NCBI RefSeq assembly: GCF_001691555.1
Contig: NZ_MAYN01000001.1
Coordinates: 310,001 to 374,000 of the forward strand
Direction of reading: 5' to 3'
Length of the DNA: 64,000 nt
Source: Pantoea eucrina
Lineage (GTDB): Bacteria; Pseudomonadota; Gammaproteobacteria; Enterobacterales; Enterobacteriaceae
The notes beneath the pieces are model-generated. The model saw only the letters and a list, made by a program, of their open reading frames with translations, was not told the DNA's origin and did no database searches. A program made the position numbers and the translations under genes. Below, in pieces: positions 36,086 to 57,174 of this stretch. Positions within the stretch are counted from its first letter, which is position 1; each line of letters starts with the position of its first letter.

Positions 36086-36492
36086 AAAGTCCCCCTTATC
36101 ATCGCTGAACATTAACTATAGTCAGCAGCAATGCGCACGTCACACTTTGCGTGCGGTTGCACTCATACCTCATTGCTGCTTCCTCAAACGAAATACCTGA
36201 CATTCGCGCAGGTAACGATAAGATGCATCAAAAATGCAATTTTTCTTTATTAAATATAGAGTTATGTCGTTTCTTATTTTAAATACGTTGAAGTATGAAT
36301 TTATATCTTTAATAAAAGTGTACAAAGGGGTGTGCGTTGTACAAATATATTCAGTCATGTTGCTGGCTAATAAAAAAGCCATTTCCAAATCAGCCAGGAA
36401 ATATAGGGTGTTTGTTTTGTTAATAAAGCGAAGCGGTAAAGAAATTCCATCGATCAACTTTTAATCGAAAATTTTTCTCCGGATGAAAAATA
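36086..36492. other. AT-rich gap without a supported gene
   Basis: About 400 bp, strongly AT-rich from 36230 to 36480. Short open frames exist on both strands but they overlap each other, lack ribosome sites and show no family motif. The low GC suggests acquired or non-coding DNA. Confidence 0.5.
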
Positions 36493-41306: not shown

Positions 41307-41326
41307 GACTGTGCCTTATATGTTGT

Positions 41327-41641: not shown

Positions 41642-41878
41642 ATGAACAAAGCAGATGATGATGAATGGGTGGATAGAGTAATAGGCGAGGCGGTAATGGC
41701 GCTGTTTGAAGAGGCGTTACCTGTTTCTTATGATGCTCTGCTCAGCAGACTGCAGGAGATGCTGGCAACGGAAAAGAGTGAAGCAAAAATCCGTTCGCTC
41801 TACTTTGCCATCCGGGAAATCCAGGGGGCAGACTGCCCGATAATCGATGCGGCCTCTCATGATCAGACGTTACACTGA
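41642..41878 (+). CDS. YmgA-like small regulatory protein
   Basis: A 78-residue acidic helical protein. The core VIGEAVMALFEEALPVSYDALLSRLQEML resembles E. coli YmgA (ITGQAVLQILRMKINFSLQTLIKQL) and, more closely, the proteins at 48944, 49996 and 51833 in this window. YmgA and relatives act on the Rcs phosphorelay in E. coli under BluR/BluF control. The gene lies 6 kb before bluF and is convergent with an AriR-like gene 30 bp away. Confidence 0.65.
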   Translation: MNKADDDEWVDRVIGEAVMALFEEALPVSYDALLSRLQEMLATEKSEAKIRSLYFAIREIQGADCPIIDAASHDQTLH

Positions 41879-41908
41879 GTGTCGGGGCACATAGCACATT
41901 GTAATGGC

Positions 41909-42109
41909 TTATTGCTCTCTGGCTGTCAGAGCGCGTACAGCGCTTGTATAGGTCTCTTTCATCCCATCAAGCGCCTCACTTTCCTGCTGCCGCAAATGCA
42001 CAAGAATGTTGTCAATACTTAAAGGCTGTCCGGATTTGCGTAAAAACGACACGGTACGCCCGATGGCGGCATGAATGGCACTGTTGTTATCCAAAACGCT
42101 GAGTTTCAC
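41909..42109 (-). CDS. AriR/YmgB-like small protein
   Basis: A 66-residue protein: IHAAIGRTVSFLRKSGQPLSIDNILVHLRQQESEA. The pattern of an IG.x.V helix followed by a hinge and a second helix resembles AriR (YmgB) and the proteins at 49310 and 55401. It is convergent with the YmgA-like gene at 41642. AriR is linked to biofilm and acid resistance in E. coli; here the function is inferred from similarity only. Confidence 0.6.
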   Translation of the reverse strand: MKLSVLDNNSAIHAAIGRTVSFLRKSGQPLSIDNILVHLRQQESEALDGMKETYTSAVRALTAREQ

Positions 42110-42203
42110 GCGGTATCCCTCTGCATATTAATCGGGTATTTATGGCTGCCATTATACGACCTGCACACGTTTTGGCCTGATGAGACGGGGTCGGGTCAGG
42201 CGT

Positions 42204-42692
42204 TCAGGGCAGTGCCTGATGCAGTTTTTCCCGCAGGGCTGCAACCCTTACGGTAAGATCATGCAGTTCTTCATAAGGGGTATCCATCACCGAAATCATA
42301 TCGGCGGGCACCCCGGCGGCTTTGCTTTTAAGCTGCTGCCCTTCATCAGTCAGGAAAATAAGTACCCGGCGTTCATCGCCGCCTGAATCGCGTTTACGCA
42401 CAATAAGACCGGCTGCTTCAAGTCTTTTCAATAACTGGCTGAGCGTGCCGGAATCGAGCCGCACGCGTGCACCCACCTCCGAGACGGTCACCTCATCTTT
42501 TTCCCACAGCGCCAGTAATACCAGATACTGGGGATAAGTAAGTCCAAGCGGTTTAAGCCGGGACTGATAAAGCTTGGTCATGGCGAGTGATGCAGAGTAG
42601 AGCGCAAAACAGAGGAACTGGTCGACGGTTACCGGTGCGTCAGACAGCGGACGCTCGTTGTTACCGCTTTGATCATTTATATCAGTACACAT
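42204..42692 (-). CDS. OhrR-family peroxide-sensing regulator
   Basis: A 162-residue MarR protein of the OhrR branch: QFLCFALYSASLAMTKLYQSRL carries the redox Cys, and LTYPQYLVLLALWE and LDSGTLSQLLKRLEAAGLI follow. OhrR represses an organic hydroperoxide reductase (ohr) and is oxidised by organic peroxides. No ohr gene is in the window, so its target must be elsewhere or lost. Confidence 0.88.
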   Translation of the reverse strand: MCTDINDQSGNNERPLSDAPVTVDQFLCFALYSASLAMTKLYQSRLKPLGLTYPQYLVLLALWEKDEVTVSEVGARVRLDSGTLSQLLKRLEAAGLIVRKRDSGGDERRVLIFLTDEGQQLKSKAAGVPADMISVMDTPYEELHDLTVRVAALREKLHQALP

Positions 42693-42856
42693 TCACGATC
42701 CATTTAACTGATGCTGGCCGACAGGGAAAACGCATGCTGCGCCCGGACAGCGACAAGTATTGAACCAAATTAAATTGATGTCAATGTAACTCGGCGCAAT
42801 CGCAGTAGCTGTCGCGGGTGTGACAAACTGGCCTATGCTTACAGCCGGAGGTCAAT

Positions 42857-43534
42857 ATGTGTGGACGATTCGCGCAGTACAGCAGCAGAGATGACTATTT
42901 TATGGCGCTCGGTATTGCGCCGGACGAGATCCAGTACGATCCATTGCCCATCGGGCGCTACAATGTCGCGCCAGGTACCCGCGTATTACTGCTCAGCGAG
43001 CGCGAAGAGGCGCTGCGGCTGGATCCTGTCTACTGGGGATATGGGCCGGAATGGTGGCATAAGCAGCCTCTGATTAATGCCCGCAGCGAAACCGCTGCCA
43101 GCGGGCGGATGTTTAAACCTCTCTGGGAACAGGGGCGGGCGATAGTACCGGCTGATGGCTGGTTCGAGTGGAAAAGAGAGAAAGGGAAAAAGCAGCCGTT
43201 TTTCATCTATCATCAGCGCAAAACGCCGCTGTTTTTTGCTGCCATCGGCAAAGCACCGTTTAATCACGCTCAGGGGCACGAAGGTTTTGTCATAGTGACG
43301 GCTTCCAGCAATAAAGGCATGGTCGATATTCACGATCGCCGCCCGCTGGTCCTGACTGCAGAAGGCGTTCATGAATGGCTGAGCAACAGCACATCCGCAC
43401 GTCGTGCCCAGGAGATCGCGCATGAAGCCGCTGAATCCGAAGACGCCTTTTGCTGGCATGCGGTGACCACGCGGGTAGGCAGCGTACGTCAGCAGGATGC
43501 TGAGTTAATTGAAGAGATCGAGCCGGAAAAGTAG
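42857..43534 (+). CDS. yedK: SRAP-domain DNA-protein crosslink protein YedK
   Basis: A 225-residue SRAP protein. It starts MCGRFAQY, so after Met removal Cys2 can form the thiazolidine link to abasic sites in single-stranded DNA. Other family positions are YNVAPGT, LINARSETAA (the Asn and Glu), DGWFEWKRE and VDIHDRRPLVL (the His). It protects abasic sites at stalled forks. The gene is monocistronic with GGAGGTCAAT before the ATG. Confidence 0.95.
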   Translation: MCGRFAQYSSRDDYFMALGIAPDEIQYDPLPIGRYNVAPGTRVLLLSEREEALRLDPVYWGYGPEWWHKQPLINARSETAASGRMFKPLWEQGRAIVPADGWFEWKREKGKKQPFFIYHQRKTPLFFAAIGKAPFNHAQGHEGFVIVTASSNKGMVDIHDRRPLVLTAEGVHEWLSNSTSARRAQEIAHEAAESEDAFCWHAVTTRVGSVRQQDAELIEEIEPEK

Positions 43535-43612
43535 CGACTGATACATTTTAGCTATCGAAATGAAAACCGGTGTCCGGTTGCAGCCAGCGGTAAGTCATTC
43601 AATAATCGAAGC

Positions 43613-43873
43613 ATGACAACTTATCGCGTAAGAGTCGGGTACCACAACCCGTCAGCCCTGACTTTCAGGCAACTTGATGAACTGCTGGAGCCGCAGCGTT
43701 TCTGGCGTACTGCTACTCACACCAGTCGCTTTCGATACTATATGGAGTATGAGTATGAATCCGACGTATGCGACCTGTGCGCAGTCTGCGCGCTGGCCTA
43801 TTCTCAGGCCTGCCGGGTGCGGCGGTGCCCGCTGGTATTAGTTGAGGAAGTGCCTGCCGCTGTGACGCAATAA
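43613..43873 (+). CDS. small cysteine-rich hypothetical protein
   Basis: An 86-residue protein not recognised. It is rich in Tyr and Arg at the N-terminus (RFRYYMEYEYES) and has a cysteine cluster CDLCAVCALAYSQACRVRRC near residues 53-72, suggesting a metal site. It follows yedK by about 80 bp on the same strand. No ribosome site is convincing, so the start and even coding status remain uncertain. Confidence 0.4.
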   Translation: MTTYRVRVGYHNPSALTFRQLDELLEPQRFWRTATHTSRFRYYMEYEYESDVCDLCAVCALAYSQACRVRRCPLVLVEEVPAAVTQ

Positions 43874-43994
43874 GTTATGCGTGCGGGTGTGCTCTGCATC
43901 ATAACAGGCGCAGCGGCATTCAGAATTGGCTCAGTGAGCCAGGCCGGTTTTTCACCTACGCTTTTCTCTGTATTTACTTACAGAGGAAGCATAA

Positions 43995-44843
43995 ATGACG
44001 AACGAACTCAGCCGGAAACCCGTTGCCGATCGTGCCGAGGCAGACGCATTTTTCCCCTCAGACTACTCGCGCAATCAATTTACCAGCCCGGTATCCGATC
44101 TGGACGGCACTGACTATCCGGTGCCCGGTGACGGAAGCAAAAAAATTCTGGTCCTGTGTACTGATGAACGTTATCTGTCTTTGGCTAACGATACGCTGTT
44201 TTCAACCGGCAATCATCCGGTAGAAACGCTACTGCCAATGTATCACCTGCACCAGGCGGGCTTTGGCCTCGACATTGCGACGCTCTCCGGTCAGATGGCA
44301 AAGTTTGAACACTGGGCCATGCCGGAGCAGGATGAAGCGGTAATACAATTTTATCAGCGCTACCAGCCAGCCTTTCGCTCCCCGCTCAGGTTAGCCGATG
44401 TGTTGGCGACCCTCTCGCCCCATAGCGACTACGCGGCTGTTTTTATACCGGGCGGGCACGGTGCGCTGATTGGCTTACCGGAGAGTCAAGAGGTGGCGTC
44501 GTTATTACGCTGGACGCTGGAAAATGACCGTTATCTGATCTCACTCTGTCACGGCCCGGCGGCATTTCTTTCATTAACAGAGTCCGATAATCCGCTGACG
44601 GGCTATGAAATCTGTGCTTTCCCTGATGCGATTGACAAGCAGACGCCGGAAATAGGCTATATGCCAGGTCATCTTGCCTGGTACTTTGGTGAAAAGCTGC
44701 GCGCTATGGGTATTCATATTATCAATGAAGACATCAAGGGTACGGTACATCGCGATCGCAATGTCATAACCGGCGACAGCCCTTATGCCGCGAATGCATT
44801 AGGCAAACTCGCTGCAGAAACGTTGCTAAAGGCATACGGTTAA
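43995..44843 (+). CDS. hchA: HchA (Hsp31) glyoxalase III / deglycase
   Basis: A 282-residue DJ-1 superfamily protein that aligns with HchA over its whole length. The catalytic Cys is in LISLCHGPAAFL near residue 184; the His and Asp/Glu partners lie in FIPGGHGALIGLPES. It turns methylglyoxal into lactate without glutathione and has holdase activity. The ATG at 43995 follows AGAGGAAGC. It ends at a hairpin terminator. Confidence 0.95.
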   Translation: MTNELSRKPVADRAEADAFFPSDYSRNQFTSPVSDLDGTDYPVPGDGSKKILVLCTDERYLSLANDTLFSTGNHPVETLLPMYHLHQAGFGLDIATLSGQMAKFEHWAMPEQDEAVIQFYQRYQPAFRSPLRLADVLATLSPHSDYAAVFIPGGHGALIGLPESQEVASLLRWTLENDRYLISLCHGPAAFLSLTESDNPLTGYEICAFPDAIDKQTPEIGYMPGHLAWYFGEKLRAMGIHIINEDIKGTVHRDRNVITGDSPYAANALGKLAAETLLKAYG

Positions 44844-44857
44844 CACACCTGTAATTT

Positions 44858-44897
44858 CCAGTCCTGATGGCTCTGTTTGTCAGGGCTGGTATTTTAA
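44858..44897 (+). terminator. terminator after hchA
   Basis: CCAGTCCTGA (44858-44867) pairs with TCAGGGCTGG (44880-44889) through 10 bp including one G-T pair, and is followed by TATTTTAAT. Confidence 0.65.
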
Positions 44898-45302
44898 TGA
44901 GACGCCATTTTAATTGAGGGCAGAGTGCGCCACTTTCCCTGCCGAAGAAGAAATCGCTGATTATCGGCGCAGGTAGCTAAAACTTTAACGCTTTATTCTG
45001 AGATAAGTTTTTTCGATAGATAACGGGGTTTTGGCTTTTTATGGAACCCGTGCTTATTTTATAACATTATGTTTTTTATAGTTTTTAACTTATTTGACTT
45101 TGGGTGTTACGCAAGAATATATCGTCAATATATCCTCTGTAAAATAACCGTTAGCAATCTATAATTTTTGAATTCACGCCTTGCGGTAATAGCTTGCAGC
45201 CCCGGATGCAACGTTTATAACGCATGGGTGATTAAATTGAAGCGTTTAATAAAAAATATTTCATTCGGAATTTATCTCTTTAGGCTCACCCAGGAATAGT
45301 GC
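44898..45302. other. AT-rich leader of the chemotaxis receptor gene
   Basis: A gap of about 400 bp, AT-rich from 45000 to 45250, with no open frame worth naming. It presumably holds the promoter of the receptor gene; no single strong promoter could be chosen. Confidence 0.4.
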
Positions 45303-47231
45303 ATGAAAAAGATACTAAACACGATCAATCTGCCAGCGAAGTTTATTTTGCTGGGGTTGTTTGCGCTCGGATTATTTATATTTCCTACCTGCCTGTTTAT
45401 TCAAAGCGGGAATCAGGCGATCGATGCTAAAAAAATTGAGCTTACGGGCATACCGGTTGAAAAAAAGATGCTATCACTGGTTAACCTGGTCCAGCGTCAT
45501 CGGGCAGAAAGTGCTATCGCTATTGCCAGCAACGATTCAGTTCGTGCTTCGCGTGTGGCGCTGGCAGAGGAGATCGATTCGCTCTATAGCAGTGTTGTCA
45601 CTGAACTCGGCCAAAACGTGGAGGCTGCACAGCCGCTGGCGCGTTTAAATAAAGCCGACGGGGAGTGGAAAAAACTGCAGACAGAGATTGGTGATAAACA
45701 CCTTTCACTGGAAGAGAGCCTCAGCCGTCATGCCAGTCTGATCCAGACATTGTTAATAGCAAACCAGGACATCCTGGATTTTTACGGCTTGTCACTGGAC
45801 GGTGACTTAAATACCTATCAGCTGATTATCAGCATTTTCAACCGGTTGCCGTTATTAACAGAAACCCTTGGGCAGATCAGGGCAAGTGGCACATCCCTGA
45901 TTGCGTCAGGCACAGGTACATCAGAGGTCGCGCTCAGTCAGATGGATTTCCGGCTGCAAAATGGCAATGTAGCGCTGGAGCAATTTAGCAATAATATGGA
46001 TAAAGTTTTTGCTATTGAACCAGCATTAAAACAGCTGTTTGCCAGCGCGGATACAACCGCCGTGCAGCAGGCACAGGATGCACTGGCGCTGGCCAATGCC
46101 ATTTTTGTATCCAAAACCAAAACCGTCACGCCGGCAGAGTATGTCCGGGTATTCACTGAGGCGATCAATAACTTTTCCACGCTGGGAAAACAGAGCGCCG
46201 ATCAGCTGTCGATCATGCTGAATCAGCAAATTGATGCACGCCGTAATGCGCAATACAGCCTGCTGGGGGTACTTTTCGCGGTGGCGTTACTGGCTGTCTG
46301 GGTCGCCGTTATGATATCCCGCTCGGTGACGCGTCCGGTGGAGGAGGCGGTTAACGCTGCCCGCCATGTTGCAGCCGGCGACCTGACCTGTCCGATTCAT
46401 GTCACTGGCAGCAATGAGATGGGGCAACTGCTGCAATCATTGCAGCATATGCAACAGCATCTTGCCGGTCTGGTATCAGATATCAAGGAGAGTGCGCTGA
46501 CTATAGCGTCATCGTCTGAAGAGATCGCAAACGGTAATGGAAATCTTTCTGCCCGCACTGAAGAGCAGGCCGCATCCCTGGCAGAAACCGCTGCCAGTAT
46601 GGAACAGATGGCATCCATTATCAGCCAGAACGCTGAAAATACTCACCATGCTACAACTATGGCTGAAGCAGCAACGCAGGCTTCATCACTCAGCGGACAG
46701 GCGATGTCCTCGGTAATGGAAACCATGGGACGTATCCGGGGCAGCTCGGCAAAAATTGAAGAGATAACCAGCGTCATTGACAGCATTGCTTTTCAGACAA
46801 ATATTCTGGCGCTGAATGCCGCAGTAGAAGCAGCCAGAGCGGGTGAGTCGGGCAAAGGGTTTGCTGTCGTCGCATCTGAAGTGCGCTCGCTGGCACAACG
46901 TTCTGCTTCTGCTGCGAAAGAGATTAAAGAACTGATTGCGCAATCTGTTGGTCACGCTGAAGAGGGGATAGTGATGGCCAGAGATGCAGGTGACAAGGTG
47001 AAACAGAGCGTAGAGGCCATCGGTCAGACAGCGCAGCTCATCCGGGATATCTCTGCCTCTTCTCATGAGCAGAGCAGCGGGATTTCGCAAATTAATATTG
47101 CAGTAAACCAGATGGATCAGGTTACACAGCAAAACGCAGCGCTGGTTGAGGAGTCAGCTTCTTCGGCTGGCGACCTTGCAGAACGAGCCTCACGTTTACG
47201 TCAGCTGGTGGCTGTTTTCCATACGGTCTGA
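45303..47231 (+). CDS. methyl-accepting chemotaxis protein
   Basis: A 642-residue receptor. One N-terminal membrane helix (residues 13-35) and a second (about 318-340) frame a 280-residue periplasmic domain, nearly twice the usual four-helix bundle. A HAMP domain follows with [19 protein letters not shown]. The signalling hairpin tip is [39 protein letters not shown], given here in its two known halves. It ends LVAVFHTV without the NWETF-type CheR/CheB tether. The ligand is unknown. Confidence 0.93.
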
Positions 47232-47241
47232 TCTTTTCAAG

Positions 47242-47262
47242 GATGCGGGCGCGTCCCGCATC
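47242..47262 (+). terminator. hairpin after the chemotaxis receptor gene
   Basis: Stem GATGCGGG / CCCGCATC with loop CGCGT, 10 bp after the stop. The T tract is weak. The rest of the 308-bp gap to bluF shows no gene. Confidence 0.55.
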
Positions 47263-47539
47263 TGTTTACAGAGAAAAAACGCAAACAAACGTCGTGAACC
47301 AACACCATTTGCCAAAAAAATTTCCGGCAGCAGACTACAATCCCACCCCGTTTCGCTTATTTACTATGCTTCTCTATGATTCTGAAAAGAGGCAATTTTG
47401 TGCATTTTCTGCTGGTTTTTTCTGGAATCATGGATTTAATATTTACAGTAATTCAGCCAGATAATTTCAGACAGCATTATACGTAGCTGCCGCCGGCTGA
47501 TAAAGTAGACAGGTACACTCACGTAAACTGGAGTATTTA

Positions 47540-48700
47540 ATGCTAACCACAATCATTTACCGTAGTCACATCTCCGCTGATGTGCCTGTCAAAATTTTGC
47601 CGGGTATGGTTGAGAAGGCGAGTCTCCTGAATGCGTCGCACCAGATTACCGGTATTCTGCTCTTTAACGGTACGCATTTCTTTCAGATCCTTGAGGGACC
47701 TGAAGAGGGTGTTATGACGATCTACAATCGCATCTGTGCTGACCGCCGTCATCACAATGTGGTTGAACTTATGCGTGACTACTCACCTTATCGCCGTTTC
47801 GGTAATTCCGGAATGGAACTGTTTGACCTGCGCGAACATGACCAGTCAACCGTACTTCAGGCGGTACTGGATCGCGGTACGTCACGCTTCCAGCTGACCT
47901 ATGACGACCGGGGCCTGCAGTTCCTGCGCACCTTTGTGGAATCGCGGGAAAAAGAGAACTATTTTGAAGTGCTGCCAGCCGATCTGTGGGACTTTATCCC
48001 CGATATGACAGGGTCGCTTCAGGAAGAGCACGGCATCCATTTCCGCCCGGTGGTCGATCCACTTGGCCGTGAAATTACCGCGCTGGAGGCCATCTCCGAC
48101 AGTCAGGAGAGTGCAGGTGAAGATGAAGATAAATACAGTGCAAATCTGAACGCTGTACGTATGGCGCTGATGAAAGCGGGTAAAGCCTGTCCGGATGGCA
48201 TGACGCTCTATTTAAGTATTCTGCCGATGACACTGGTTGCGGTGCCAAACGCGGTCGATACCATTACGGATGCGATTAAAAGCGCCGGGCTGGTGCCAGA
48301 GCAGATTATTTTGGGCGTCAGTGAAACAGAAGTTATCCCGGGCCTGAATGACTTTACTGAAGCGGTCAAGCAGCTCAAGCAGGCGGGCATCAGCCTGTCG
48401 ATTGATAATTTCGGTGATGGCTCTGCCGGACTTTCACTGCTGACACATGTACAGCCCGATCGCGTGCGTATTGCATCCGGGATTATTCGTGATGTACACC
48501 GTAGCGGTCCTAAGCAGGCCGTCGTGCAGGCTATTATCAAATGTTGTTCAGCCCTTGAAATTAATGTCATTGCATCTGGCATTGAACAGCCTGAAGAGTG
48601 GATGTGGCTTGAGGCTGCAGGCGTCATTGATTTCCAGGGGGCGCTCTTTACGCCCCAGGGTACAGCCGTGTCGTGGCCGGAATATCGCGAAGCGATGTAG
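47540..48700 (+). CDS. bluF: BLUF-EAL blue-light receptor BluF
   Basis: A 386-residue protein similar to E. coli BluF (YcgF). The BLUF domain (residues 1-95) has the flavin residues Tyr7 (TIIYRS), Asn31 and Gln49 (FFQILEG). The EAL domain (about 160-385) is degenerate: ALEAISD in place of EALLR, SETE in place of ELTE, IDNFGDG in place of DDFGTG and RVRIA in place of the catalytic Lys. It should not hydrolyse cyclic di-GMP. E. coli BluF instead binds and removes the MerR-type repressor BluR when illuminated. No bluR lies in this window. Confidence 0.93.
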   Translation: MLTTIIYRSHISADVPVKILPGMVEKASLLNASHQITGILLFNGTHFFQILEGPEEGVMTIYNRICADRRHHNVVELMRDYSPYRRFGNSGMELFDLREHDQSTVLQAVLDRGTSRFQLTYDDRGLQFLRTFVESREKENYFEVLPADLWDFIPDMTGSLQEEHGIHFRPVVDPLGREITALEAISDSQESAGEDEDKYSANLNAVRMALMKAGKACPDGMTLYLSILPMTLVAVPNAVDTITDAIKSAGLVPEQIILGVSETEVIPGLNDFTEAVKQLKQAGISLSIDNFGDGSAGLSLLTHVQPDRVRIASGIIRDVHRSGPKQAVVQAIIKCCSALEINVIASGIEQPEEWMWLEAAGVIDFQGALFTPQGTAVSWPEYREAM

Positions 48701-48731
48701 CGCCATTCTCTGCATCTGCATCACTCTGACC

Positions 48732-48768
48732 GACCGGCGCATCATCAATGCAGCCGGTCATTTTTTTT
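48732..48768 (+). terminator. terminator after bluF
   Basis: GACCGGC (48732-48738) pairs with GCCGGTC (48753-48759), with an inner GCAT/ATGC pairing, followed by A and eight T. Confidence 0.85.
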
Positions 48769-48943
48769 AGCCAGGCTTCTTTCGGTCAGACTTTCATCTC
48801 CGCCAGTAAGGGCGTTTTCTGGCATCATGAATACGGTAAATCAGTGAAATTTATACGAAACGCTCAGGCTCATTGCGGTACAGGGTTACACACGAAAATT
48901 CTGTGTTAAACTTTGCGACCCCGAACCTGCAGGCGGACACATC

Positions 48944-49207
48944 ATGAAAAAAGAATTTGAAGAAAAACTGACTGAAATTTTAATCGGTGAGGCCGTGACT
49001 GATTTACTTGATGCCAATGCGGCTATTTCATGGACTGCTTTACTTGATCGCCTGCGTGTTGGCCTGGATAAAGAGACCGATGAGGATCGCATCCGTGCCG
49101 CATTGCGCGCTATCGATGAAGTCAGACGTGAAATGCAGGTAAGGGCATCTGAAAAAGCGATTATCACTGAATCTGACAGACGACCTGCGCGTGACAAAAT
49201 GCATTAA
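48944..49207 (+). CDS. YmgA-like small regulatory protein
   Basis: An 87-residue charged helical protein: LTEILIGEAVTDLLDANAAISWTALLDRLRVGLDK. It is close in pattern to the proteins at 41642, 49996 and 51833 and resembles E. coli YmgA. A TGTTAAACT -10-like motif lies about 40 bp upstream, shared with the next gene. It is the first of the small-protein genes after bluF. Confidence 0.68.
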   Translation: MKKEFEEKLTEILIGEAVTDLLDANAAISWTALLDRLRVGLDKETDEDRIRAALRAIDEVRREMQVRASEKAIITESDRRPARDKMH

Positions 49208-49245
49208 AATTGACCACAATCAAAGATTTCCCACAGTCTGACGCT

Positions 49246-49268
49246 AAATTGTTCCCCGGGAACAATTT
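49246..49268 (+). promoter_or_regulatory. perfect 23-bp palindrome upstream of an AriR-like gene
   Basis: AAATTGTTCCC and GGGAACAATTT flank one central C. A TTAAACT -10-like motif follows directly. This placement, a dyad just before the -10, is that of MerR-family operators, so a BluR-like site is a reasonable hypothesis. It could also act as a hairpin ending the upstream gene. Confidence 0.5.
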
Positions 49269-49309
49269 CTGTTAAACTGTATGCTTATCCACCTACGGAC
49301 GGAGGTCAT

Positions 49310-49507
49310 GTGAAAAATGACGCAACCGCCGAAGATATCTACGCCGTTATCGGAACGGTCGTAGCGCGCCTTCTTAAGCCGGATGAGCATCTGAATCTGC
49401 ATGATATTACTACTGCGCTGCATCAGATGGGTGAGACAGCGACAGGGCAGGATGTTCGTGAGGCCTGCCGCAAAGCGGTAATCATGCTTGCCCGCCAGAT
49501 GCACTAA
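49310..49507 (+). CDS. AriR/YmgB-like small protein
   Basis: A 65-residue protein: DIYAVIGTVVARLLKPDEHLNLHDITTALHQMGETATG and a second helix ending VIMLARQMH. It resembles AriR and the protein at 55401 (ALLGDVITQILKPGEALSLQEIIGAL). The start is GTG at 49310, four bases after a GGAGG ribosome site; the ATG that overlaps it is followed by a stop. Confidence 0.68.
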   Translation: MKNDATAEDIYAVIGTVVARLLKPDEHLNLHDITTALHQMGETATGQDVREACRKAVIMLARQMH

Positions 49508-49524
49508 CTCATATTTACGCAATA

Positions 49525-49767
49525 TTAACGATCAAACAACAATCCAATCAGTGCCTGATAATGCTGCTCTTCTTCAGCGCTGGTTGCTGCTTCAAGACGA
49601 CCAAGCAGCTTTGTACATAGCGCTTTGCGATTGAGGTTTTTACCTGAGGTCAGAATTTCAACAACCAGTTGTCCCAGCGTTTCCTGCTGGCTCAGAGTGG
49701 ATGCTTTACTAAAATAGTTAGCGATATCACTAGCGGATGATGGGTGCTGTACCATATTCTGACGCAT
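49525..49767 (-). CDS. ycgZ: YcgZ-like small connector protein
   Basis: An 80-residue protein that aligns with E. coli YcgZ over most of its length: DIANYFSKASTLSQQETLGQ, then LVVEILTSGKNLNRKALCTK and LGRLEAATSAEEEQHYQALIG. In E. coli ycgZ heads the ycgZ-ymgA-ariR-ymgC operon released by BluF, and YcgZ acts on the Rcs phosphorelay. Here it is on the opposite strand and convergent with the AriR-like gene at 49310, so the operon has been rearranged. Confidence 0.82.
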   Translation of the reverse strand: MRQNMVQHPSSASDIANYFSKASTLSQQETLGQLVVEILTSGKNLNRKALCTKLLGRLEAATSAEEEQHYQALIGLLFDR

Positions 49768-49995
49768 AGTTAGCCTCTTTGAGATAAGTAAGTTGTGCTG
49801 ACAGGGGTAAAGTTATACAACTAACTTTTACTTGTACAGCTTTTTCTGCCCTTCTTTTGTCAGCTTTACCACGATATTTGTTTTTTATGTTACAAATCAA
49901 TGGTTTGAGCCGGTTCCTGCCAGAACAAAAATCTCACTCTATCTTTGTACAGGTTCAGCGTATGGGTCTGTATAAGGTTGTTCCGATAAAATGTG

Positions 49996-50322
49996 TTAAT
50001 TGTCGTCATCGTCGCCCGTGGTGAAAGGCGTCGGTTTAGCTGGCAAGGTTGTTTGCTCATGACGCTTTGCCTGAAGCTGCCATTGTGTATGCGTTTTGTG
50101 TAGTCGCTCAGGCTGTACAAAATTTTTCAGCCAGCTTCTGGCATCTGCAATTTGTGCCAGACGCTCATCATTCTCTTCTGTCTCTGCCATGCGAACCAGC
50201 TCAGCGATCAGAGCCTGAACGCTGATATCCCCATCGCCCAGTGCCAGATTCAACGTTGCTTCGCCAATAATGACATGACCTATTACCTTTTCATGAAACA
50301 ACACTTCATCTCTCCTCATCAT
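49996..50322 (-). CDS. YmgA-like small protein with extended C-terminus
   Basis: A 108-residue protein: HVIIGEATLNLALGDGDISVQALIAELVRMAETEENDERL, then ARSWLKNF. It is nearly identical in design to the protein at 51833 but carries a longer, polar tail rich in Lys, Thr and Asp (HKTHTQWQLQAKRHEQ and a DDDDN end). The repeated design within 2 kb suggests duplication. Confidence 0.68.
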   Translation of the reverse strand: MMRRDEVLFHEKVIGHVIIGEATLNLALGDGDISVQALIAELVRMAETEENDERLAQIADARSWLKNFVQPERLHKTHTQWQLQAKRHEQTTLPAKPTPFTTGDDDDN

Positions 50323-50946
50323 GGTTTGTAATGGTTTTAAAGTGTAATGAGCAGCAATATTTCTACAATACGTTATAAATAATCAGCTAAGCTCAGGGGC
50401 GAAACATATTTAATGACTATGAAATGCAGGTTTGTAACGCACTGATAGCGTGCAACATCATTCTGATGCCGCAGTGTAAACTGACTGAAGGCAGAATAAT
50501 CTTAAAAAAAATTAATGTTATTTATTTTCTTCTTGTTCAACTTTTGCAGCGGCTCACGCGTTGCACGCCATTTCCGGAATAGATTGATCGGTCATCATTA
50601 CACGCTGGTCAGCGTGATAAAAAACCAAACACGGTTAACACAAGCTCGCTTTTAAGACTATGCGCCTTTTTTGATCGGGCCTGAGCATTGTATTAACTCT
50701 CTGAATACTGACCGTTATTGCCGCTTTTCCGTAAGGTAATAATCTGAGCCAGAATTACATCAGCTGAGGATTTCACTTTTGCGGCCCGTATCGGGCAGTG
50801 CCGGGATAGGCTTTGCTGCACGGCCACGCTGAAAGTACCTGTATATCGCTGCTGCGATTTTATACCCATGTTAAGCCTGGCACGCTTACGACATACCCGC
50901 TCTGCGTTAGCAGGCAAAATTTTACGCGGCTCACAGAGAAGGGGAG
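50323..50946. other. gap without a supported gene
   Basis: 624 bp; the first half is AT-rich. Short minus-strand frames near 50693-50917 have no ribosome site or family pattern. It separates a YmgA-like gene from an unknown gene on the same strand. Confidence 0.4.
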
Positions 50947-51597
50947 TTACTGTTCGGGGTCTTCGGGAGCGAGAGAAACCGTGCTGATGATAATTCTGCG
51001 CTGTAAATGGCTGTCAGGCTGGCTGCCCCAGCAAAATGTTACCCAGTGTTCGCAAAATTCCTGCCAGTCAGAGACGGGTACCAGCAGCCTGTCGTGGCGG
51101 GTGCCATCCCATACATAGACATAATGATCCGGATCGCGCAATGCCCAGGCAATCATGCTTTCCCACATAACCTTTGCCGCATTAGTCTGGGCACTGTCAG
51201 TGATAATAATTGAACGTGTATGCAGGAAATAACAAAAAAAACGGCGTGCCAGTCCATGCACAGCCTGTTCATGTTGAGGCTGACGCGTGCGCCAGACCAT
51301 AATCTGAATGCAGGCGCGCAGAGGAGAAGTATAATCCCTGGTTTCTTCCAGCCTTACCGCATAGACCGTTTCCGGTCTCTTTTCCTGGGTAACCAGCCGG
51401 TATTGTTTATCTTCCGGACAGACATACAGAGCATAACCAAACGGCACAATAAAGCCTGGCAGTGTGAATGCACGGGGATCGTCTGCCAGAAAAGCGCTGG
51501 TATCATCCCGATTTGGCGCTTCACGACTCAGAATCTGGTTAAAGTGCGTATCAGGCAGAGTAATGGGCATAAGGTTATCCGCTGTATTTCGTTCCAA
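50947..51597 (-). CDS. hypothetical protein in the BluF small-protein region
   Basis: A 216-residue soluble protein, not recognised. It contains YALYVCPEDKQYRLVTQEKR, then a C-terminal half rich in aromatic residues (RRFFCYFLHTRSIIITDSAQ, MWESMIAWALRD, YVYVWDGTRHDRLL). No signal peptide or membrane segment is seen. The TTG at 51597 is chosen because GGGAGGT precedes it by 4-5 nt; an ATG at 51570 has no such site, and the frame stays open to 51660. It lies between two YmgA-like genes on the same strand. Confidence 0.6.
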   Translation of the reverse strand: MERNTADNLMPITLPDTHFNQILSREAPNRDDTSAFLADDPRAFTLPGFIVPFGYALYVCPEDKQYRLVTQEKRPETVYAVRLEETRDYTSPLRACIQIMVWRTRQPQHEQAVHGLARRFFCYFLHTRSIIITDSAQTNAAKVMWESMIAWALRDPDHYVYVWDGTRHDRLLVPVSDWQEFCEHWVTFCWGSQPDSHLQRRIIISTVSLAPEDPEQ

Positions 51598-51832
51598 AAG
51601 ACCTCCCTGAAAACCGGAGTGGGTGTGATGATAAATTAGCGAAGAATGATAAGCTGGCACAGCAGGAAAGCGTGTAACCGGAAATGATGCTGTATGCGCC
51701 TGCCTATATGCAGGGTAGCAGAGCGGAGGTGTCGTCCCTGACAGTTTCTCCGGCCGGTAAACACTTGCGCGTAACCGATAAGGTTATCTTTATCGTCGTC
51801 TTCCAGCCGGAGCCGGACTACGTCCATAGGCG

Positions 51833-52093
51833 TCAGTTCTTTTCGTCGTTCAGGCTTGTCAGTGTCTGCAAATAGGGCACGTACGGTACAGCGTGCTCAG
51901 GTTTATCAAAACTTCTCAGCCAGCTTCTGGCCTCTGAGATCTCAATAAGACGGGCATCGCTGCCACCCGCATTCGCCATTAATTCGAGCTCATTAATCAG
52001 TGAACGAACGCTGATCTTTTTTTCGCTCAACGCAAGGCTGAGTGCCGCTTCGCCGATAATGACATGACCTATCTCGTCGTGTTGAATAGACAA
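51833..52093 (-). CDS. YmgA-like small protein
   Basis: An 86-residue protein: IGHVIIGEAALSLALSEKKISVRSLINELELM, then EISEARSWLRSF. It shares with the protein at 49996 the same GHVIIGEA start and ARSWL(K/R)(N/S)F end of the core, so the two are paralogs. A ribosome site AAAGGAGG lies a few bases upstream. Confidence 0.68.
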   Translation of the reverse strand: MSIQHDEIGHVIIGEAALSLALSEKKISVRSLINELELMANAGGSDARLIEISEARSWLRSFDKPEHAVPYVPYLQTLTSLNDEKN

Positions 52094-52270
52094 ACAAACC
52101 TCCTTTACGATTGCGTGATAACCTCAACACTTACTGTAGGCGTAACGGCAGAATTTGCCGGATATATTTTGAAATTTTCCAAATCAGGTAGCAGAATTTT
52201 TTGATCGAATGCTTTTTAGCCAATGAAAATTCTGCAGACTATTACCACCAGGCTGACTCTCACATGCTGC

Positions 52271-52366
52271 AAAAAAAAACCCGCGCAGGGCGGGCTAACA
52301 AAATGTTGAATAGGATTTCTCTCGCTGAAAACGCATCCTGTGTGTTGTTTGCCAGAATAAGCTGGC
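52271..52366 (-). ncRNA. possible small RNA with strong terminator
   Basis: On the minus strand a TATAAT (52378-52373) is followed about 75-100 bp later by a stem CCCGC / GCGGG and nine T (52296-52271). This would give an RNA of roughly 95 nt. A frame MSQLILANNTQDAFSARE starts 6 nt after the -10 but runs through the terminator, so coding is unlikely. A -35 is not clear. Confidence 0.35.
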
Positions 52367-52398
52367 TCATAAATTATAGATGACAAGTCAGCGGAAAA

Positions 52399-52419
52399 CG
52401 GGTTTCAGCGCGAAACCCG
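52399..52419 (-). terminator. hairpin upstream of the possible small RNA
   Basis: Perfect 8-bp stem CGGGTTTC / GAAACCCG with loop AGCGC, followed on the minus strand by TTTTCC. Confidence 0.45.
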
Positions 52420-52545
52420 ATGAAAAACTGCCATGCTCATCGGACCAGCATAAAATAGTGTGGTAAACCAATTGCGCCGCGTTTAAGCGATTTACAGAAA
52501 TGTATTACCTGGTCAGAGGCGGGGGAGGCCTGCGCCTTAACAGGC

Positions 52546-52572
52546 AAAAAAAAATGCCTCCGCGAGGAGGCA
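52546..52572 (-). terminator. minus-strand terminator
   Basis: Stem TGCCTCC / GGAGGCA with a 4-nt loop is followed on the minus strand by a run of nine T. It directly follows a 19-codon open frame and ends transcription from the acetyltransferase gene side. Confidence 0.8.
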
Positions 52573-52585
52573 AGGTAGGAGTTAC

Positions 52586-52645
52586 TCAGCTCAGTGCGTA
52601 GTTGGATTTCTCACTGAACATGTTAATGATAGAGAAATTTGTCAT
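52586..52645 (-). CDS. possible 19-residue peptide before a terminator
   Basis: ATG at 52645 opens MTNFSIINMFSEKSNYALS and stops 14 bp before a strong terminator. A GGA-type ribosome site (CCGGAAAAAA) is weak. The layout of a tiny frame, then a terminator, recalls a leader peptide or stand-alone small protein. No family is recognised, and there is no biosynthetic operon after it. Confidence 0.3.
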   Translation of the reverse strand: MTNFSIINMFSEKSNYALS

Positions 52646-52812
52646 TTTTTTCCGGCTCGCTTAGTAAAAAAATTTACATGCCAGGTATATAGTTAGCTTG
52701 CTAATTATTTAAGGTGTTGAATTATGACTGTTTTTTGAGGTATGAAATCGTTTCCTAAGAATTGGCTTATATTTACATTTCCTGTTTACATCACTTTTTT
52801 TAATCATATTTT

Positions 52813-53343
52813 TCAGGTGATCTTCATTGTTGCAGATGCCTTATCAACCTGGCTCAGAACAATGAACTGTTGATTGTCATAACTAAATTGCGCTACCGGC
52901 TGCAGGCCAAGGCGTATGTGCGCTTTAAGAGAGGCGATATTGTCATGCCTGACAAAAAGCACGGGCTTACGCGAACCATAGTGACGACATGCGCGCGCGA
53001 AAAGCGCTTCTGAGAGGCCTTTTCCGCGAGACTGCGTAGCGATACAGATCGGACCGTAAATCCAGCAATGTCTGCCTGCAGGCCAGGCGCTAAGCATGGC
53101 AGTGATAATGTCAGGCGTATTTGCTGCATTGTCCTGAGTAAACAATACGCCCTGCAGTCGTGATTTTTGCCTTACCAGCAGCGCCCAGGTTGCACTATTA
53201 CTGAGCAGCTCGCATACCCTTTCCTGACTAAATATTCCCTGTAATAACGCGATGTTTTGCTGTAAGAGCTGGCTGATTTCTGCACTATCGTTTTTCTGTG
53301 CCAGGTGAAATGTACTCTGCTGATTGTTCAAATGTCGCTCCAT
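52813..53343 (-). CDS. GNAT-family acetyltransferase
   Basis: A 176-residue protein with the GNAT acetyl-CoA loop RGKGLSEALFARACRHYGSR near residue 110-129 and the following strand VLFVRHDNIASLKAHIRLGLQ, the usual HN..s...y.k.Gf pattern. The N-terminal 60 residues are helical and variable. It is divergent from the SDR gene at 53486. The substrate is unknown. Confidence 0.75.
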   Translation of the reverse strand: MERHLNNQQSTFHLAQKNDSAEISQLLQQNIALLQGIFSQERVCELLSNSATWALLVRQKSRLQGVLFTQDNAANTPDIITAMLSAWPAGRHCWIYGPICIATQSRGKGLSEALFARACRHYGSRKPVLFVRHDNIASLKAHIRLGLQPVAQFSYDNQQFIVLSQVDKASATMKIT

Positions 53344-53485
53344 CTCACTGTTGGCATTGTTATAAGTTTTGTCTGTTTTTCGTGCTTTCTCCGTTGAGAG
53401 TCATCCTAAAACGTAGGTTTTGCTTGATGACTGACGAGAGCTTGCCAGGCTTAGGAAGGTCATTTCCATCAGATAAGGAGAAATC

Positions 53486-54250
53486 ATGTCACGGTTTGCA
53501 GATAAAGTTGTCGTTATCACTGGTGCAGGATCAGGTATTGGCGCTGCGTCAGCACAACGTTTTGCTGCTGAGGGCGCGTCAGTTGTACTGGTGGGAAGAA
53601 CAGAAGAGAAGCTGCGAAAAGTCAAAGAGGCTTTACCTGCTGGCAAACATCTTGTTGTTCCATGCGATGTCTCAGATGCAGAGCAGGTCAGGCAGCTGAG
53701 TGAAAAGGTTAGCCAGCACTACGGGCGTGCGGATGTACTGGTAAACAATGCGGGCAGTATTGTTCAGGGTAAGATCCACGAAGTTTCGCCTGAAGACTGG
53801 AAGACGCTCATGGGCACCGATCTGGATGGCGTCTACTACTGTACGCACTACTTTATGCCAGCCCTGCTGAAAACTAAAGGCAACGTCGTTAACATCTCTT
53901 CCGTTTCCGGACTTGGCGGAGACTGGGGTATGAGTGTATATAACGCGGCTAAAGGCGCCGTAACCAACTTTACGCGCGCGCTGGCAATGGATTACGGTTC
54001 AGACGGCGTAAGAGTCAATGCTATCTGTCCCGGTTTTACATTTACCGATTTAACTGAAAATGCAAAACAGGATGAAGCGTTACTGGCGCGCTTTTACGAT
54101 CGTATTCCACTGCGTCGTGCGGGAGAAGCTGATGACATTGCGAGCGCGATTGCCTTTATTGCCAGCGATGATGCCCGCTATATAACGGGCGCTAACCTGC
54201 CGGTTGATGGCGGTTTAACGGCATCAAACGGTCAGCCAAAACAAGCCTGA
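53486..54250 (+). CDS. SDR-family oxidoreductase
   Basis: A 254-residue classical short-chain dehydrogenase of the FabG/glucose-1-dehydrogenase kind. TGAGSGIGAASAQRF is at about residues 11-25, NNAG near 89, catalytic Ser in ISSVSGLGG and YNAAK at about 152-156, and the C-terminal ITGANLPVDGG. A GGAG ribosome site lies before the ATG. The substrate is unknown. It ends at a terminator shared with the convergent lipoprotein gene. Confidence 0.9.
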   Translation: MSRFADKVVVITGAGSGIGAASAQRFAAEGASVVLVGRTEEKLRKVKEALPAGKHLVVPCDVSDAEQVRQLSEKVSQHYGRADVLVNNAGSIVQGKIHEVSPEDWKTLMGTDLDGVYYCTHYFMPALLKTKGNVVNISSVSGLGGDWGMSVYNAAKGAVTNFTRALAMDYGSDGVRVNAICPGFTFTDLTENAKQDEALLARFYDRIPLRRAGEADDIASAIAFIASDDARYITGANLPVDGGLTASNGQPKQA

Positions 54251-54262
54251 TAGCAATAAAAA

Positions 54263-54287
54263 AAGCCCGCGGCAGTTGCGCGGGCTT
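54263..54287. terminator. terminator between SDR and lipoprotein genes
   Basis: Stem AAGCCCGCG / CGCGGGCTT, 9 bp, loop 7 nt. On the minus strand a run of seven T follows, a good intrinsic terminator for the lipoprotein gene. Confidence 0.88.
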
Positions 54288-54306
54288 ATCGGTGATATTA
54301 CGCGAA

Positions 54307-54537
54307 TTATGAGCGTGGGATCTCGGAAACTTCTTTCACATCAGCTTTGTTAATTTGTTGTTTAACGCCGTTAGCATCAACATAGCCCAGCAGTCCTGAC
54401 TCTGCTTCTTTCGGTTTGCCGTCGCTGACAATTGTACGACCATCATTGGTATGAATAGCGTAGCTGGTACGGGTACAGCCGGTAAGGGCGGACAGGGCAA
54501 TAACCGCTGCTACAGGAAGTAAAATAACTTTCTTCAT
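54307..54537 (-). CDS. YgdI/YgdR family lipoprotein
   Basis: A 76-residue lipoprotein. The signal peptide ends in the lipobox LTGC (Cys21). The mature part has the family pattern YAIHTNDGRTIVSDGKPKEA and then GLLGYVDANGVKQQINKADV. Such proteins are small outer- or inner-membrane lipoproteins of unknown role. A paralog lies 22 bp upstream on the same strand. Confidence 0.92.
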   Translation of the reverse strand: MKKVILLPVAAVIALSALTGCTRTSYAIHTNDGRTIVSDGKPKEAESGLLGYVDANGVKQQINKADVKEVSEIPRS

Positions 54538-54559
54538 TGTGCTCTCCTTGATAGATGGA

Positions 54560-54790
54560 TCAGTTATTCAGTTCGCTCATGTTCGTGATCTGATCACGAT
54601 TGATCTGCTCAGTTTTGCCGGTTTGCGCGTTCTCATACGATACCAGTCCGGTATCGCTGTCTACCTGTGGTTTGCCACTGGTAATAATGGTGCGGCCATC
54701 AGTCGTTTTAATCGCCTGGTTAGACGAGCAGCCGGTTACGGCTAAAAGTGAAGTCAGGACTGCAGCAGCAACAACCATTTTTTTCATCAT
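54560..54790 (-). CDS. YgdI/YgdR family lipoprotein, paralog
   Basis: A 76-residue lipoprotein with lipobox VTGC (Cys21) and AIKTTDGRTIITSGKPQVDS followed by GLVSYENAQTGKTEQINRDQ. It and the downstream gene are a tandem pair with about half their positions identical. The start may be the second ATG at 54787. Upstream, 54791-55098 holds no other gene. Confidence 0.92.
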   Translation of the reverse strand: MMKKMVVAAAVLTSLLAVTGCSSNQAIKTTDGRTIITSGKPQVDSDTGLVSYENAQTGKTEQINRDQITNMSELNN

Positions 54791-55098
54791 ATTTCCCTAT
54801 TTCTGGACACGTTATAAGAGGAGCATAGTCCATAATTTCCGGGAGTGGTCTGACCTTGATGATTTTTTTGTGCAATTAATGCGGCGAAAAGCAGAAGCCT
54901 GTGTTCTGCCAAAGCGCGCGGTTTGGCATCAGGCCGTTAATGCCTGAGAAACAGATAAACGCAGACATATCGAAAGAAAACGATCGAAATACGTGAAAAC
55001 ATCTTTAGCGAAAGCGATATCACGCCATACAGATGTATCAGTGTGAGTACAAAAAAGAAGATTCGGTAAGTGATGATCGGCGAGGGCAATGACTAACG

Positions 55099-55350
55099 TC
55101 AGGCTGCCTGAATCCGCCCTAACAGCAAACTAAAAAGATTATCGTAATGCATTTTTTCTGCTGGATCGGTACAGTGATCAAGCCGCGAAAGCAAAGAAAT
55201 ACACAAGGCCTTACGGTTGAGCGTTTTATCAGAACATAAAATCTCTTTAACCATTTCACCGAGTAATTTGAATTCTGCAGATTGCTGTATTCTGGTCTGC
55301 TCTTCTGCGCTGATTTTATCCGCTGCAGGAAAATATGGATTCTGGCACAT
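55099..55350 (-). CDS. second YcgZ-like small protein
   Basis: An 83-residue protein: SAEFKLLGEMVKEILCSDKT, then LNRKALCISLLSRLDHCTDP and MHYDNLFSLLLGRIQ. It is a clear paralog of the YcgZ-like protein at 49525 (shared GxxVxEIL, LNRKALC, LLxRL, HY..L..LL). It probably forms a unit with the AriR-like gene 50 bp upstream. Confidence 0.78.
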   Translation of the reverse strand: MCQNPYFPAADKISAEEQTRIQQSAEFKLLGEMVKEILCSDKTLNRKALCISLLSRLDHCTDPAEKMHYDNLFSLLLGRIQAA

Positions 55351-55400
55351 AACTCTCTCTTCTTAATTAAACAGGCTTAATCAACCTTCACCGGGCACTA

Positions 55401-55619
55401 TTAGTTCATTTTCTTTGCCAGCAACCGAATAACCTTTTCACACGCCTGCTGTACTTCAGGGCTGTCACTCCGCAAACCGGTACGGTATAACGCACCAATA
55501 ATCTCCTGCAAAGAAAGCGCTTCGCCTGGTTTTAATATTTGCGTAATGACGTCACCCAGTAACGCGTGCATCGCTTCTGCATCTTCTGAATCATCTTGCC
55601 GCACATAACCCTCATCCAT
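55401..55619 (-). CDS. AriR/YmgB-like small protein
   Basis: A 72-residue protein: MHALLGDVITQILKPGEALS, then LQEIIGALYRTGLRSDSPEV and VIRLLAKKMN. It resembles AriR and the protein at 49310. The ATG at 55619 is preferred; the frame is open to a TTG at 55679, which would add 20 residues of no clear pattern. The downstream gene is YcgZ-like, so the order matches part of the E. coli operon in reverse. Confidence 0.7.
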   Translation of the reverse strand: MDEGYVRQDDSEDAEAMHALLGDVITQILKPGEALSLQEIIGALYRTGLRSDSPEVQQACEKVIRLLAKKMN

Positions 55620-55730
55620 TTTTAAATTGCTTAACGTTTTTAATATGTCAGAGACGCCTGTAACGTAAAGTCGCGACAACAGTAAAATAACTTAGTTAGG
55701 AAATGCGTATTTCCTAATAGCGCAGCAGCA

Positions 55731-57150: not shown

Positions 57151-57174
57151 CCCATTCAGCAGTAAGGAGAGGCT

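What the first reader, a model, noticed from the sequence alone, without database searches (positions are those of the whole stretch)
41642..55679. Expanded BluF region: one BLUF-EAL receptor with nine YmgA/AriR/YcgZ-like small proteins
E. coli has one bluF and one ycgZ-ymgA-ariR-ymgC operon. Here a BluF with a clearly degenerate EAL domain is surrounded within 14 kb by four YmgA-like (41642, 48944, 49996, 51833), three AriR-like (41909, 49310, 55401) and two YcgZ-like (49525, 55099) genes, in at least five separate units on both strands. The repeated designs (for example IIGEA and ARSWL in 49996 and 51833) show local duplication. Such a set on a plasmid could give graded light or temperature control of the Rcs system, capsule and biofilm. 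The nearby diguanylate cyclase with a lost I-site fits the theme. No bluR is in the window.
Basis: partly seen in the sequence, partly recalled or inferred. Interest (0 to 1): 0.78.

Follow-up and report, generated by a model that had tools for sequence, protein, structure and literature searches.

The report
Plasmid island of light-linked small regulators
A large Pantoea plasmid carries a blue-light sensor that has lost most of its enzyme residues, set among nine small proteins of one family whose E. coli members act on a capsule and biofilm control system; other Pantoea plasmids carry similar islands, and they look like an enlarged version of the E. coli light switch.

Summary

It is not a one-off: this genome has about 22 members; 60 Pantoea genomes have 0-45 (median 13.5). 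The plasmid BluF belongs to a clade (class III) that keeps the BLUF residues but has lost most scored EAL residues. BluR lies beside E. coli-type bluF in 14 of 14 loci but beside class III in 0 of 31; here it is on another contig, presumably the chromosome. A BluR-type operator precedes 20 of 21 YcgZ genes of class III loci, but none of the other eight window genes.

Best reading: a light-gated anti-repressor circuit spread over replicons, with YcgZ the light-gated member among connectors under other control. Whether BluF's partner is BluR or a second, plasmid MerR is open; light response and Rcs output are inferred.

The parts
47540..48700 (+). class III bluF: BLUF photoreceptor domain plus a shortened EAL domain that lacks most of the scored catalytic residues
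   Evidence: Pfam BLUF and EAL; BLUF Y7/N31/Q49/M92 kept, 3 of 9 scored EAL residues kept; 97% identical in P. eucrina XL123 with dN/dS 0.02
49525..49767 (-). ycgZ, first gene of the E. coli-type operon; here without the ymgA and ariR that follow it in most related islands
   Evidence: NCBIfam NF040640 129 bits, cut-off 80; dN/dS 0.01; gene order
49813..49839 (-). BluR-type operator/promoter of ycgZ, CTGTACAAGTAAAAGTTAGTTGTATAA
   Evidence: same 27 bases in P. eucrina; sites of this kind upstream of 38 of 47 YcgZ genes
48944..49207 (+). YmgA-type connector
   Evidence: cluster 1 with E. coli YmgA; dN/dS 0.08
49310..49507 (+). connector of new subfamily g4 (GTG start)
49996..50322 (-). connector of new subfamily g3 (P. 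eucrina annotation starts 18 nt later)
   Evidence: cluster 3; dN/dS 0.25
51833..52093 (-). connector of new subfamily g3 (TTG start)
55099..55350 (-). second YcgZ-type gene, no BluR-type operator found
   Evidence: NCBIfam YcgZ 63 bits, below the cut-off of 80; clusters with YcgZ
55401..55679 (-). connector of subfamily g4, downstream of a TetR gene; the TTG start is uncertain, the conserved part is the last 73 codons
   Evidence: cluster 4
41642..41878 (+). YmgA-type connector
   Evidence: cluster 1; dN/dS 0.19
41909..42109 (-). orphan connector, nearest to g4; GTG start; downstream of a MarR gene; not annotated in the XL123 record
   Evidence: hhalign to g4 probability 85.7, to the other families 13 or less; dN/dS 0.17
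36318..36344 (.). further BluR-type operator-like site, about 230 bp upstream of a DksA/TraR-type zinc-finger gene (35819-36085, minus)
   Evidence: 1 mismatch of 16; conserved in P. eucrina XL123; zf-dskA_traR

Best explanation
This is a plasmid-borne, enlarged relative of the E. coli BluF-BluR-YcgZ/YmgA/AriR blue-light circuit. The class III BluF should sense blue light with its intact BLUF domain but should no longer bind or cut c-di-GMP; like E. coli BluF it most likely works by binding and disabling a MerR-type repressor. The repressor that fits the conserved operator at the plasmid ycgZ promoter is BluR, encoded on C8 (presumably the chromosome), so the circuit would run across replicons: sensor on C1, repressor on C8, operators at ycgZ on C1 and C6, at an ariR-type gene on C8, at bluR itself and, with changed spacing, at the C8 ycgZ. 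Light would release YcgZ. The other connectors in the island lack the operator, so they would be made under other stimuli. They share the YmgB superfamily and would meet in mixed complexes on RcsC (capsule, biofilm) or SpoT. Shown here: gene family, predicted fold of two members, loss of EAL residues, operator conservation, layout over contigs, recurrence of the island. Inferred: light response, BluF-repressor contact, effect on Rcs or SpoT, complexes, control of the non-operator genes.
For: BLUF residues Y, N, Q, M kept in the window protein and in every class III protein scored except L085, whose frame is cut short; the EAL replacements are nearly the same across class III; class III is one branch in the tree bar one row. 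Operator with 3 or fewer mismatches of 16 upstream of 38 of 47 YcgZ genes, against 7 of 213 other connectors and 19 of 2000 random stretches; 20 of 21 YcgZ genes of class III loci. BluR in 59 of 60 Pantoea genomes, with two perfect half-sites upstream of its own gene here. The E. coli BluR site has GTACA half-sites (PMC3509220, passages). Superfamily: hhalign links against 30 controls, folds. RcsC gene present. E. [quoted passage not shown] YmgB acts on SpoT (PMC10704370, passages). Genomes with the shorter class III BluF hold more connectors (median 21.5, n=20) than those with the longer type (13, n=19) or none (6, n=21) (classes set by hand, relatedness not corrected).
Against: BluR is not near class III bluF in any of 31 loci. 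A second MlrA-like MerR lies near it in 9 of 31 loci and in 0 of 49 others, and is on C6 here, so BluR may not be the partner. The pI of the EAL domain does not set anti-repressors apart. The 12 class III loci of the ananatis/agglomerans type have no connectors in the fetched flanks. Only one of nine window genes has the operator. The C8 ycgZ and the E. coli ycgZ have other half-site spacings. The operator pattern was read off this genome's own sites before it was scored. Not every subfamily pair links directly in hhalign (YcgZ-g3 0.8, AriR-g3 1.5). No expression or binding data.
Confidence: 0.55

Rival explanations
1. Class III BluF no longer acts on BluR. Its partner is the second, plasmid-borne MlrA-like MerR regulator (MerR2; here at C6:146532), which would bind other DNA and control other genes, perhaps the connectors without a BluR operator. 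BluR would control ycgZ without light, or under the other BLUF-EAL protein of this genome.
For: MerR2 proteins compared here are 46-79% identical to each other and 22-25% to E. coli BluR, with a differing DNA-binding region; within the fetched flanks of class III bluF in 9 of 31 loci and of 0 of 49 others, directly upstream of bluF on the same strand in L065, L066 and L068 and about 1.6 kb away in P. soli; 108 of 113 plasmid records that match at E 1e-30 are Pantoea.
Against: In 22 of 31 class III loci it was not found near (some flanks are cut). The BluR-type operator is retained in class III islands.
Confidence: 0.27
2. The small genes are a lineage-specific family expansion of stress connectors on Pantoea replicons that merely neighbour bluF; there is no common light circuit, and the copies are largely redundant passengers.
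For: About 22 members over three contigs, 13 of the 22 outside the window; genome counts vary 0-45; most connectors have no operator; 51833 is broken in one P. eucrina strain.
Against: Shared gene order bluF, YmgA-type, g4, then YcgZ in reverse in many class III loci; purifying selection on all nine; loci with class I BLUF-EAL proteins only have 0-2 connectors in 25 of 25.
Confidence: 0.15
3. The plasmid BluF is still a c-di-GMP phosphodiesterase or c-di-GMP receptor with unusual residues.
For: EAL domain still scores 124.5 bits; first EAL glutamate, one DD aspartate and the late glutamine remain.
Against: Six of nine scored positions changed, and a segment after the EAL motif is deleted; E. 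coli BluF, which keeps six of nine, does not bind or cut c-di-GMP (PMC3509220, passages; section 11).
Confidence: 0.03

Closest known systems
E. coli K-12 bluR-bluF-ycgZ-ymgABC (Tschowri et al. 2012, PMC3509220)
   Same: BLUF-EAL protein with degenerate EAL; YcgZ and YmgA-type genes; GTACA half-site operator upstream of ycgZ
   Different: Here BluR is on another contig, ycgZ stands without ymgA and ariR, there are nine connectors in 14 kb with two unnamed subfamilies, and the EAL domain keeps three of nine scored residues against six in E. coli
Cronobacter plasmid pESA3 bluR-bluF-ycgZ-ymgA-ariR (L056)
   Same: Plasmid-borne circuit with the same gene families
   Different: Compact E. coli layout, class II BluF, BluR adjacent, three connectors
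Klebsiella BlrP1, a blue-light phosphodiesterase (as described in PMC3509220, section 5)
   Same: Domain layout; this genome's other BLUF-EAL protein (C8:892260) keeps all nine scored EAL residues
   Different: The plasmid protein keeps three of nine
E. coli YmgB/AriR, PDB 2OXL
   Different: Sequence identity 23% and 14%; no valid Pfam or NCBIfam match; no AriR-type cluster membership

Membership tests
YcgZ/YmgA/AriR (YmgB) superfamily, all nine ORFs | Sequence-profile relationship to E. coli YcgZ, YmgA or AriR | tested here: met
   hhalign: YmgA-g3 97.9, YmgA-g4 97.0, YcgZ-AriR 97.7, YcgZ-YmgA 77.9, g4-41909 85.7; low for some pairs (YcgZ-g3 0.8, AriR-g3 1.5, AriR-41909 0.4), which join only through YmgA or g4; 30 control families at most 1.5. 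41909 rests on two sequences
YcgZ/YmgA/AriR (YmgB) superfamily, all nine ORFs | Three-helix YmgB fold | tested here: met
   2 of 9 modelled (49310, 51833); 2OXL ranked first, well apart from the next row (Foldseek E 0.1); the other seven not modelled
AriR proper (41909, 49310, 55401) | Membership in the AriR subfamily cluster | tested here: not met
   AriR cluster holds no window protein; AriR-g4 probability 23.4, AriR-41909 0.4
YcgZ (49525) | NCBIfam NF040640 above the curated cut-off | tested here: met
   129.3 bits, cut-off 80
YcgZ (55099) | NCBIfam NF040640 above the curated cut-off | tested here: not met
   63 bits, cut-off 80; called YcgZ-type only
BluF of E. coli type (anti-repressor) | BLUF domain with flavin-site residues | tested here: met
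   Y7, N31, Q49, M92 (roles recalled)
BluF of E. coli type (anti-repressor) | EAL domain lacking c-di-GMP-binding and catalytic residues | tested here: met
   3 of 9 kept (residue roles recalled)
BluF of E. coli type (anti-repressor) | bluR adjacent | tested here: not met
   none in the window; 0 of 31 class III loci
BluF of E. coli type (anti-repressor) | Light-dependent release of BluR from DNA | not testable with these tools
   needs purified proteins or reporters
Rcs connectors | Contact with RcsC and activation of RcsB targets | not testable with these tools
   RcsC gene present

The most novel reading that the evidence does not exclude
Pantoea plasmids carry a third functional kind of BLUF-EAL protein, neither phosphodiesterase nor the bluR-linked E. 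coli type, that gates a circuit spread over chromosome and plasmids. Around it evolved a bank of connector proteins, including two undescribed subfamilies, under separate promoters, so that many stimuli feed into one output (RcsC and/or SpoT) by mixing of small subunits, with YcgZ as the light-gated subunit.
Probability: 0.35. Interest if true: 0.85.

Novelty: new variant of a known kind. Interest (0 to 1): 0.7.

Why it matters
The E. coli light circuit is known with one sensor, one repressor and one four-gene operon, and its authors wrote that degenerate bluF is usually located next to a bluR-like gene (PMC3509220, section 5). Here is a large clade with more degraded EAL domains and no bluR nearby, yet with the operator retained. 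It gives a natural series (intact, E. coli-type, class III, with Siccibacter-type intermediates) for how an enzyme may turn into a regulator. It also offers a test case for why one genus multiplied a family of small signalling proteins to as many as 45 per sampled genome, and it marks two subfamilies that Pfam and NCBIfam do not cover.

Tried and rejected
Scored but uninformative or negative: EAL-domain pI as a sign of anti-repressor function (class III median 4.61, class I 4.73, class II 4.79). A common origin of the chemotaxis gene beside bluF here and in pESA3: only the signalling half aligns, 46% over 323 residues. The perfect inverted repeat upstream of 49310 (AAATTGTTCCC-C-GGGAACAATTT): the strict pattern was found in no other held locus over 5 kb, XL123 has it with one change, L051 and L052 lack it, so it was dropped as a shared regulator site. 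Conserved dyads upstream of class III bluF: only a promoter-like stretch near the start is shared. Pfam alone as a census: nine matches genome-wide at E 0.001, eight over the cut-off, against 24 at E 0.1 with my profile. The g3 profile finds no YmgB among solved sequences, its one match being a designed protein; the g4 profile finds 2OXL first but only at E 0.01. Spearman correlation of kept EAL residues with connector number is -0.45 over 91 proteins, but it mixes clades and counts some loci twice; I rely on the class table. A review on Erwinia amylovora (PMC12910134, passages) held nothing on this circuit.

Rows left out or moved: L085 (frame cut short) from the tree; four incomplete or odd proteins from the pI test; L099 (Serratia) was put in class III by the count rule but has other residues, and was taken out of class III. 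YcgZ-type genes under 60 bits to the window YcgZ (such as 55099) count among the 'other connectors' and are not in the 20 of 21.
Full report
Setting. The window is C1:310001-374000 of a 3.94 Mb genome in 8 contigs. The stretch 46000-56400 matches three plasmid records (two Pantoea, one labelled Acinetobacter) at 87% identity over 90%, and most of 40010-57490 aligns with the 343 kb circular plasmid of P. eucrina XL123 in three blocks. So C1 (424 kb) is taken to be a large Pantoea plasmid. C6 (162 kb) is taken to be a second one: its MerR-type gene is 89% identical to one on a 107 kb plasmid of Pantoea sp. PSNIH1. C8 (2.63 Mb) is taken to be the chromosome from its size. These three are inference.

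Real genes. dN/dS is 0.01-0.25: seven genes against P. eucrina XL123; 55401 on its last 73 codons; 51833 against P. eucrina LMG 5346 (10 differences only), because XL123 has an internal stop there. The paralogues are old: 51833 is 78% identical to an L066 gene and 41% to 49996; 49310 is 74% identical to an L059 gene and 34% to 55401.

Genome-wide and genus-wide. The profile finds 24 matches at E 0.1 and 22 at 1e-5 in this genome: nine in the window, one more on C1, five on C6 and nine on C8, of which the three weakest (535684, 920611, 2089308) are unproven. In 60 Pantoea (GTDB genus) genomes, this one included, 59 have matches, range 0-45, median 13.5. In a sample of 246 genomes of the family, 83 have matches; outside the genus the highest count is 13. 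In 148 genomes of the order, 6 have matches, all within the family. The profile is built mostly from this genome, so the comparison leans its way.

The BLUF-EAL proteins. This genome has two. The one on C8 keeps nine of nine scored EAL residues; the window one keeps three (residue roles recalled; PMC3509220 was read in its abstract, sections 5 and 11 and passages). The tool found 220 relatives in genome contigs and kept the best 80 loci. Of these 80, 31 carry class III proteins (2-4 of 9 residues kept, nearly the same replacements, BLUF residues kept except in L085, whose frame is cut short); seven of the 31 also hold a class I protein; 14 carry E. coli-type (class II), 25 class I only, and 10 others. 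BluR above 200 bits lies in 14 of 14 class II loci, 0 of 31 class III, 0 of 25 class I and 0 of 10 others. Connector counts: class II 2-3, one with 9; class I 0-2; others 0-10; class III 0-12. Within class III, the 12 loci of the ananatis/agglomerans type (L073-L084) have none; of the other 19, one has none, one two, sixteen three to eleven and one twelve. A tree on the first 160 residues only (BLUF part and linker) places 35 of 36 rows labelled class III on one side of a branch (support 81), joined by three intermediates from Siccibacter and [Erwinia] mediterraneensis (97, starred); class II is one branch (99, starred) and II, III and the intermediates group at 83 (quick method). The intermediates keep eight of nine residues but have 3-10 connectors and no BluR nearby, which suggests that the link to connectors came before most of the decay.

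The island. Many class III loci share an order: bluF, YmgA-type, g4, then on the other strand AriR, YmgA, YcgZ, often with g3 next (g4 or YmgA is missing in some). In this window and in P. eucrina LMG 5346, AriR and YmgA are missing from it, so ycgZ stands alone; ycgZ-ymgA-ariR sets are on C6 and C8. Similar islands lie on plasmids of Pantoea At-9b and P. dispersa that PLSDB types as conjugative.

The operator. E. coli BluR protects GTACA half-sites in the ycgZ promoter (PMC3509220, passages). Here the ycgZ promoter has CTGTACAAGTAAAAGTTAGTTGTATAA, beginning 72 nt upstream of the start. The pattern TTGTACAA-N11-TTGTACAA, chosen after seeing this genome's sites, occurs with up to one mismatch at five places genome-wide, among them the bluR promoter and the C8 ariR-type gene; with up to three there are 16 places against 7 for the pattern read backwards. 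Upstream of YcgZ (60 bits or more to the window YcgZ) it occurs with three or fewer mismatches in 38 of 47 genes, against 7 of 213 other connectors (five of these AriR-type genes beside class I bluF) and 19 of 2000 random stretches (Fisher p 7e-30 and 9e-58, not corrected for relatedness). In class III loci it is 20 of 21 YcgZ genes, one of them (L060) at an odd distance. BluR itself is in 59 of 60 Pantoea genomes, one match each. So the operator has been kept where bluR is not near, which fits control in trans.

Rival partner. A second MlrA-like MerR (C6:146532 here; Pfam MlrA domains) is 46-57% identical to the relatives compared and 25% to E. coli BluR. Its family lies within the fetched flanks of class III bluF in 9 of 31 loci and of 0 of 49 others. 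I cannot decide between BluR and this protein.

Mechanism. E. [quoted passage not shown] YmgB induction of Rcs does not need RcsF or the RcsC periplasmic domain (PMC11709261, passages), and YmgB also acts on SpoT (PMC10704370, passages). An RcsC gene is present here. I infer that the Pantoea connectors are interchangeable or competing subunits of such complexes. Several orphans follow one-component regulator genes: 41909 after MarR, 55401/55099 after TetR, C1:391057 after HxlR; that would give other inputs, but I made no statistical test of it.

Prior work. PMC3509220 compared E. coli, Klebsiella, Enterobacter and others and states that degenerate bluF is usually next to a bluR-like gene (section 5); a term search of its text found no Pantoea or Erwinia. 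The open-access searches (listings only) showed no study of this expansion in Pantoea.

Noticed in passing
window 36318-36344: BluR-type operator-like site, conserved in P. eucrina XL123, about 230 bp upstream of a DksA/TraR-type zinc-finger gene and downstream of a KGG stress-protein gene.
   Followed up: partly
G000:C7:206410-206436 (L045): Perfect TTGTACAA-N11-TTGTACAA site upstream of a KGG (YciG-type) stress gene, followed by a gene whose product I take for YciF-type (name recalled); a possible further BluR target.
   Followed up: partly
window 41909/42204, 55401/55731; L041 1435/1808: Connector genes directly downstream of MarR, TetR and HxlR regulator genes; possible separate inputs.
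   Followed up: partly
window 49246-49268 and upstream of 55401 (TTAGGAAATACGCATTTCCTAA): Strong inverted repeats upstream of both g4 genes, different in sequence; the first was not found by strict pattern in the other loci held here.
   Followed up: partly
G000:C6:146532: Divergent MlrA/BluR-like MerR regulator family found mostly on Pantoea plasmids (113 plasmid records at E 1e-30, 108 labelled Pantoea).
   Followed up: partly
L066, L067, L069; L070, L071: Three class III bluF loci on contigs of one genome (Candidatus Pantoea formicae); L070 and L071 are two neighbouring class III bluF copies on one contig of Pantoea sp. A4.
   Followed up: no
L128; record CP060162: Records labelled Chryseobacterium and Acinetobacter venetianus carry enterobacterial-looking DNA and may be mislabelled or contaminated.
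   Followed up: no
window 50947-51660: 237-residue ORF inside the island with no Pfam match, conserved in P. eucrina.
   Followed up: no
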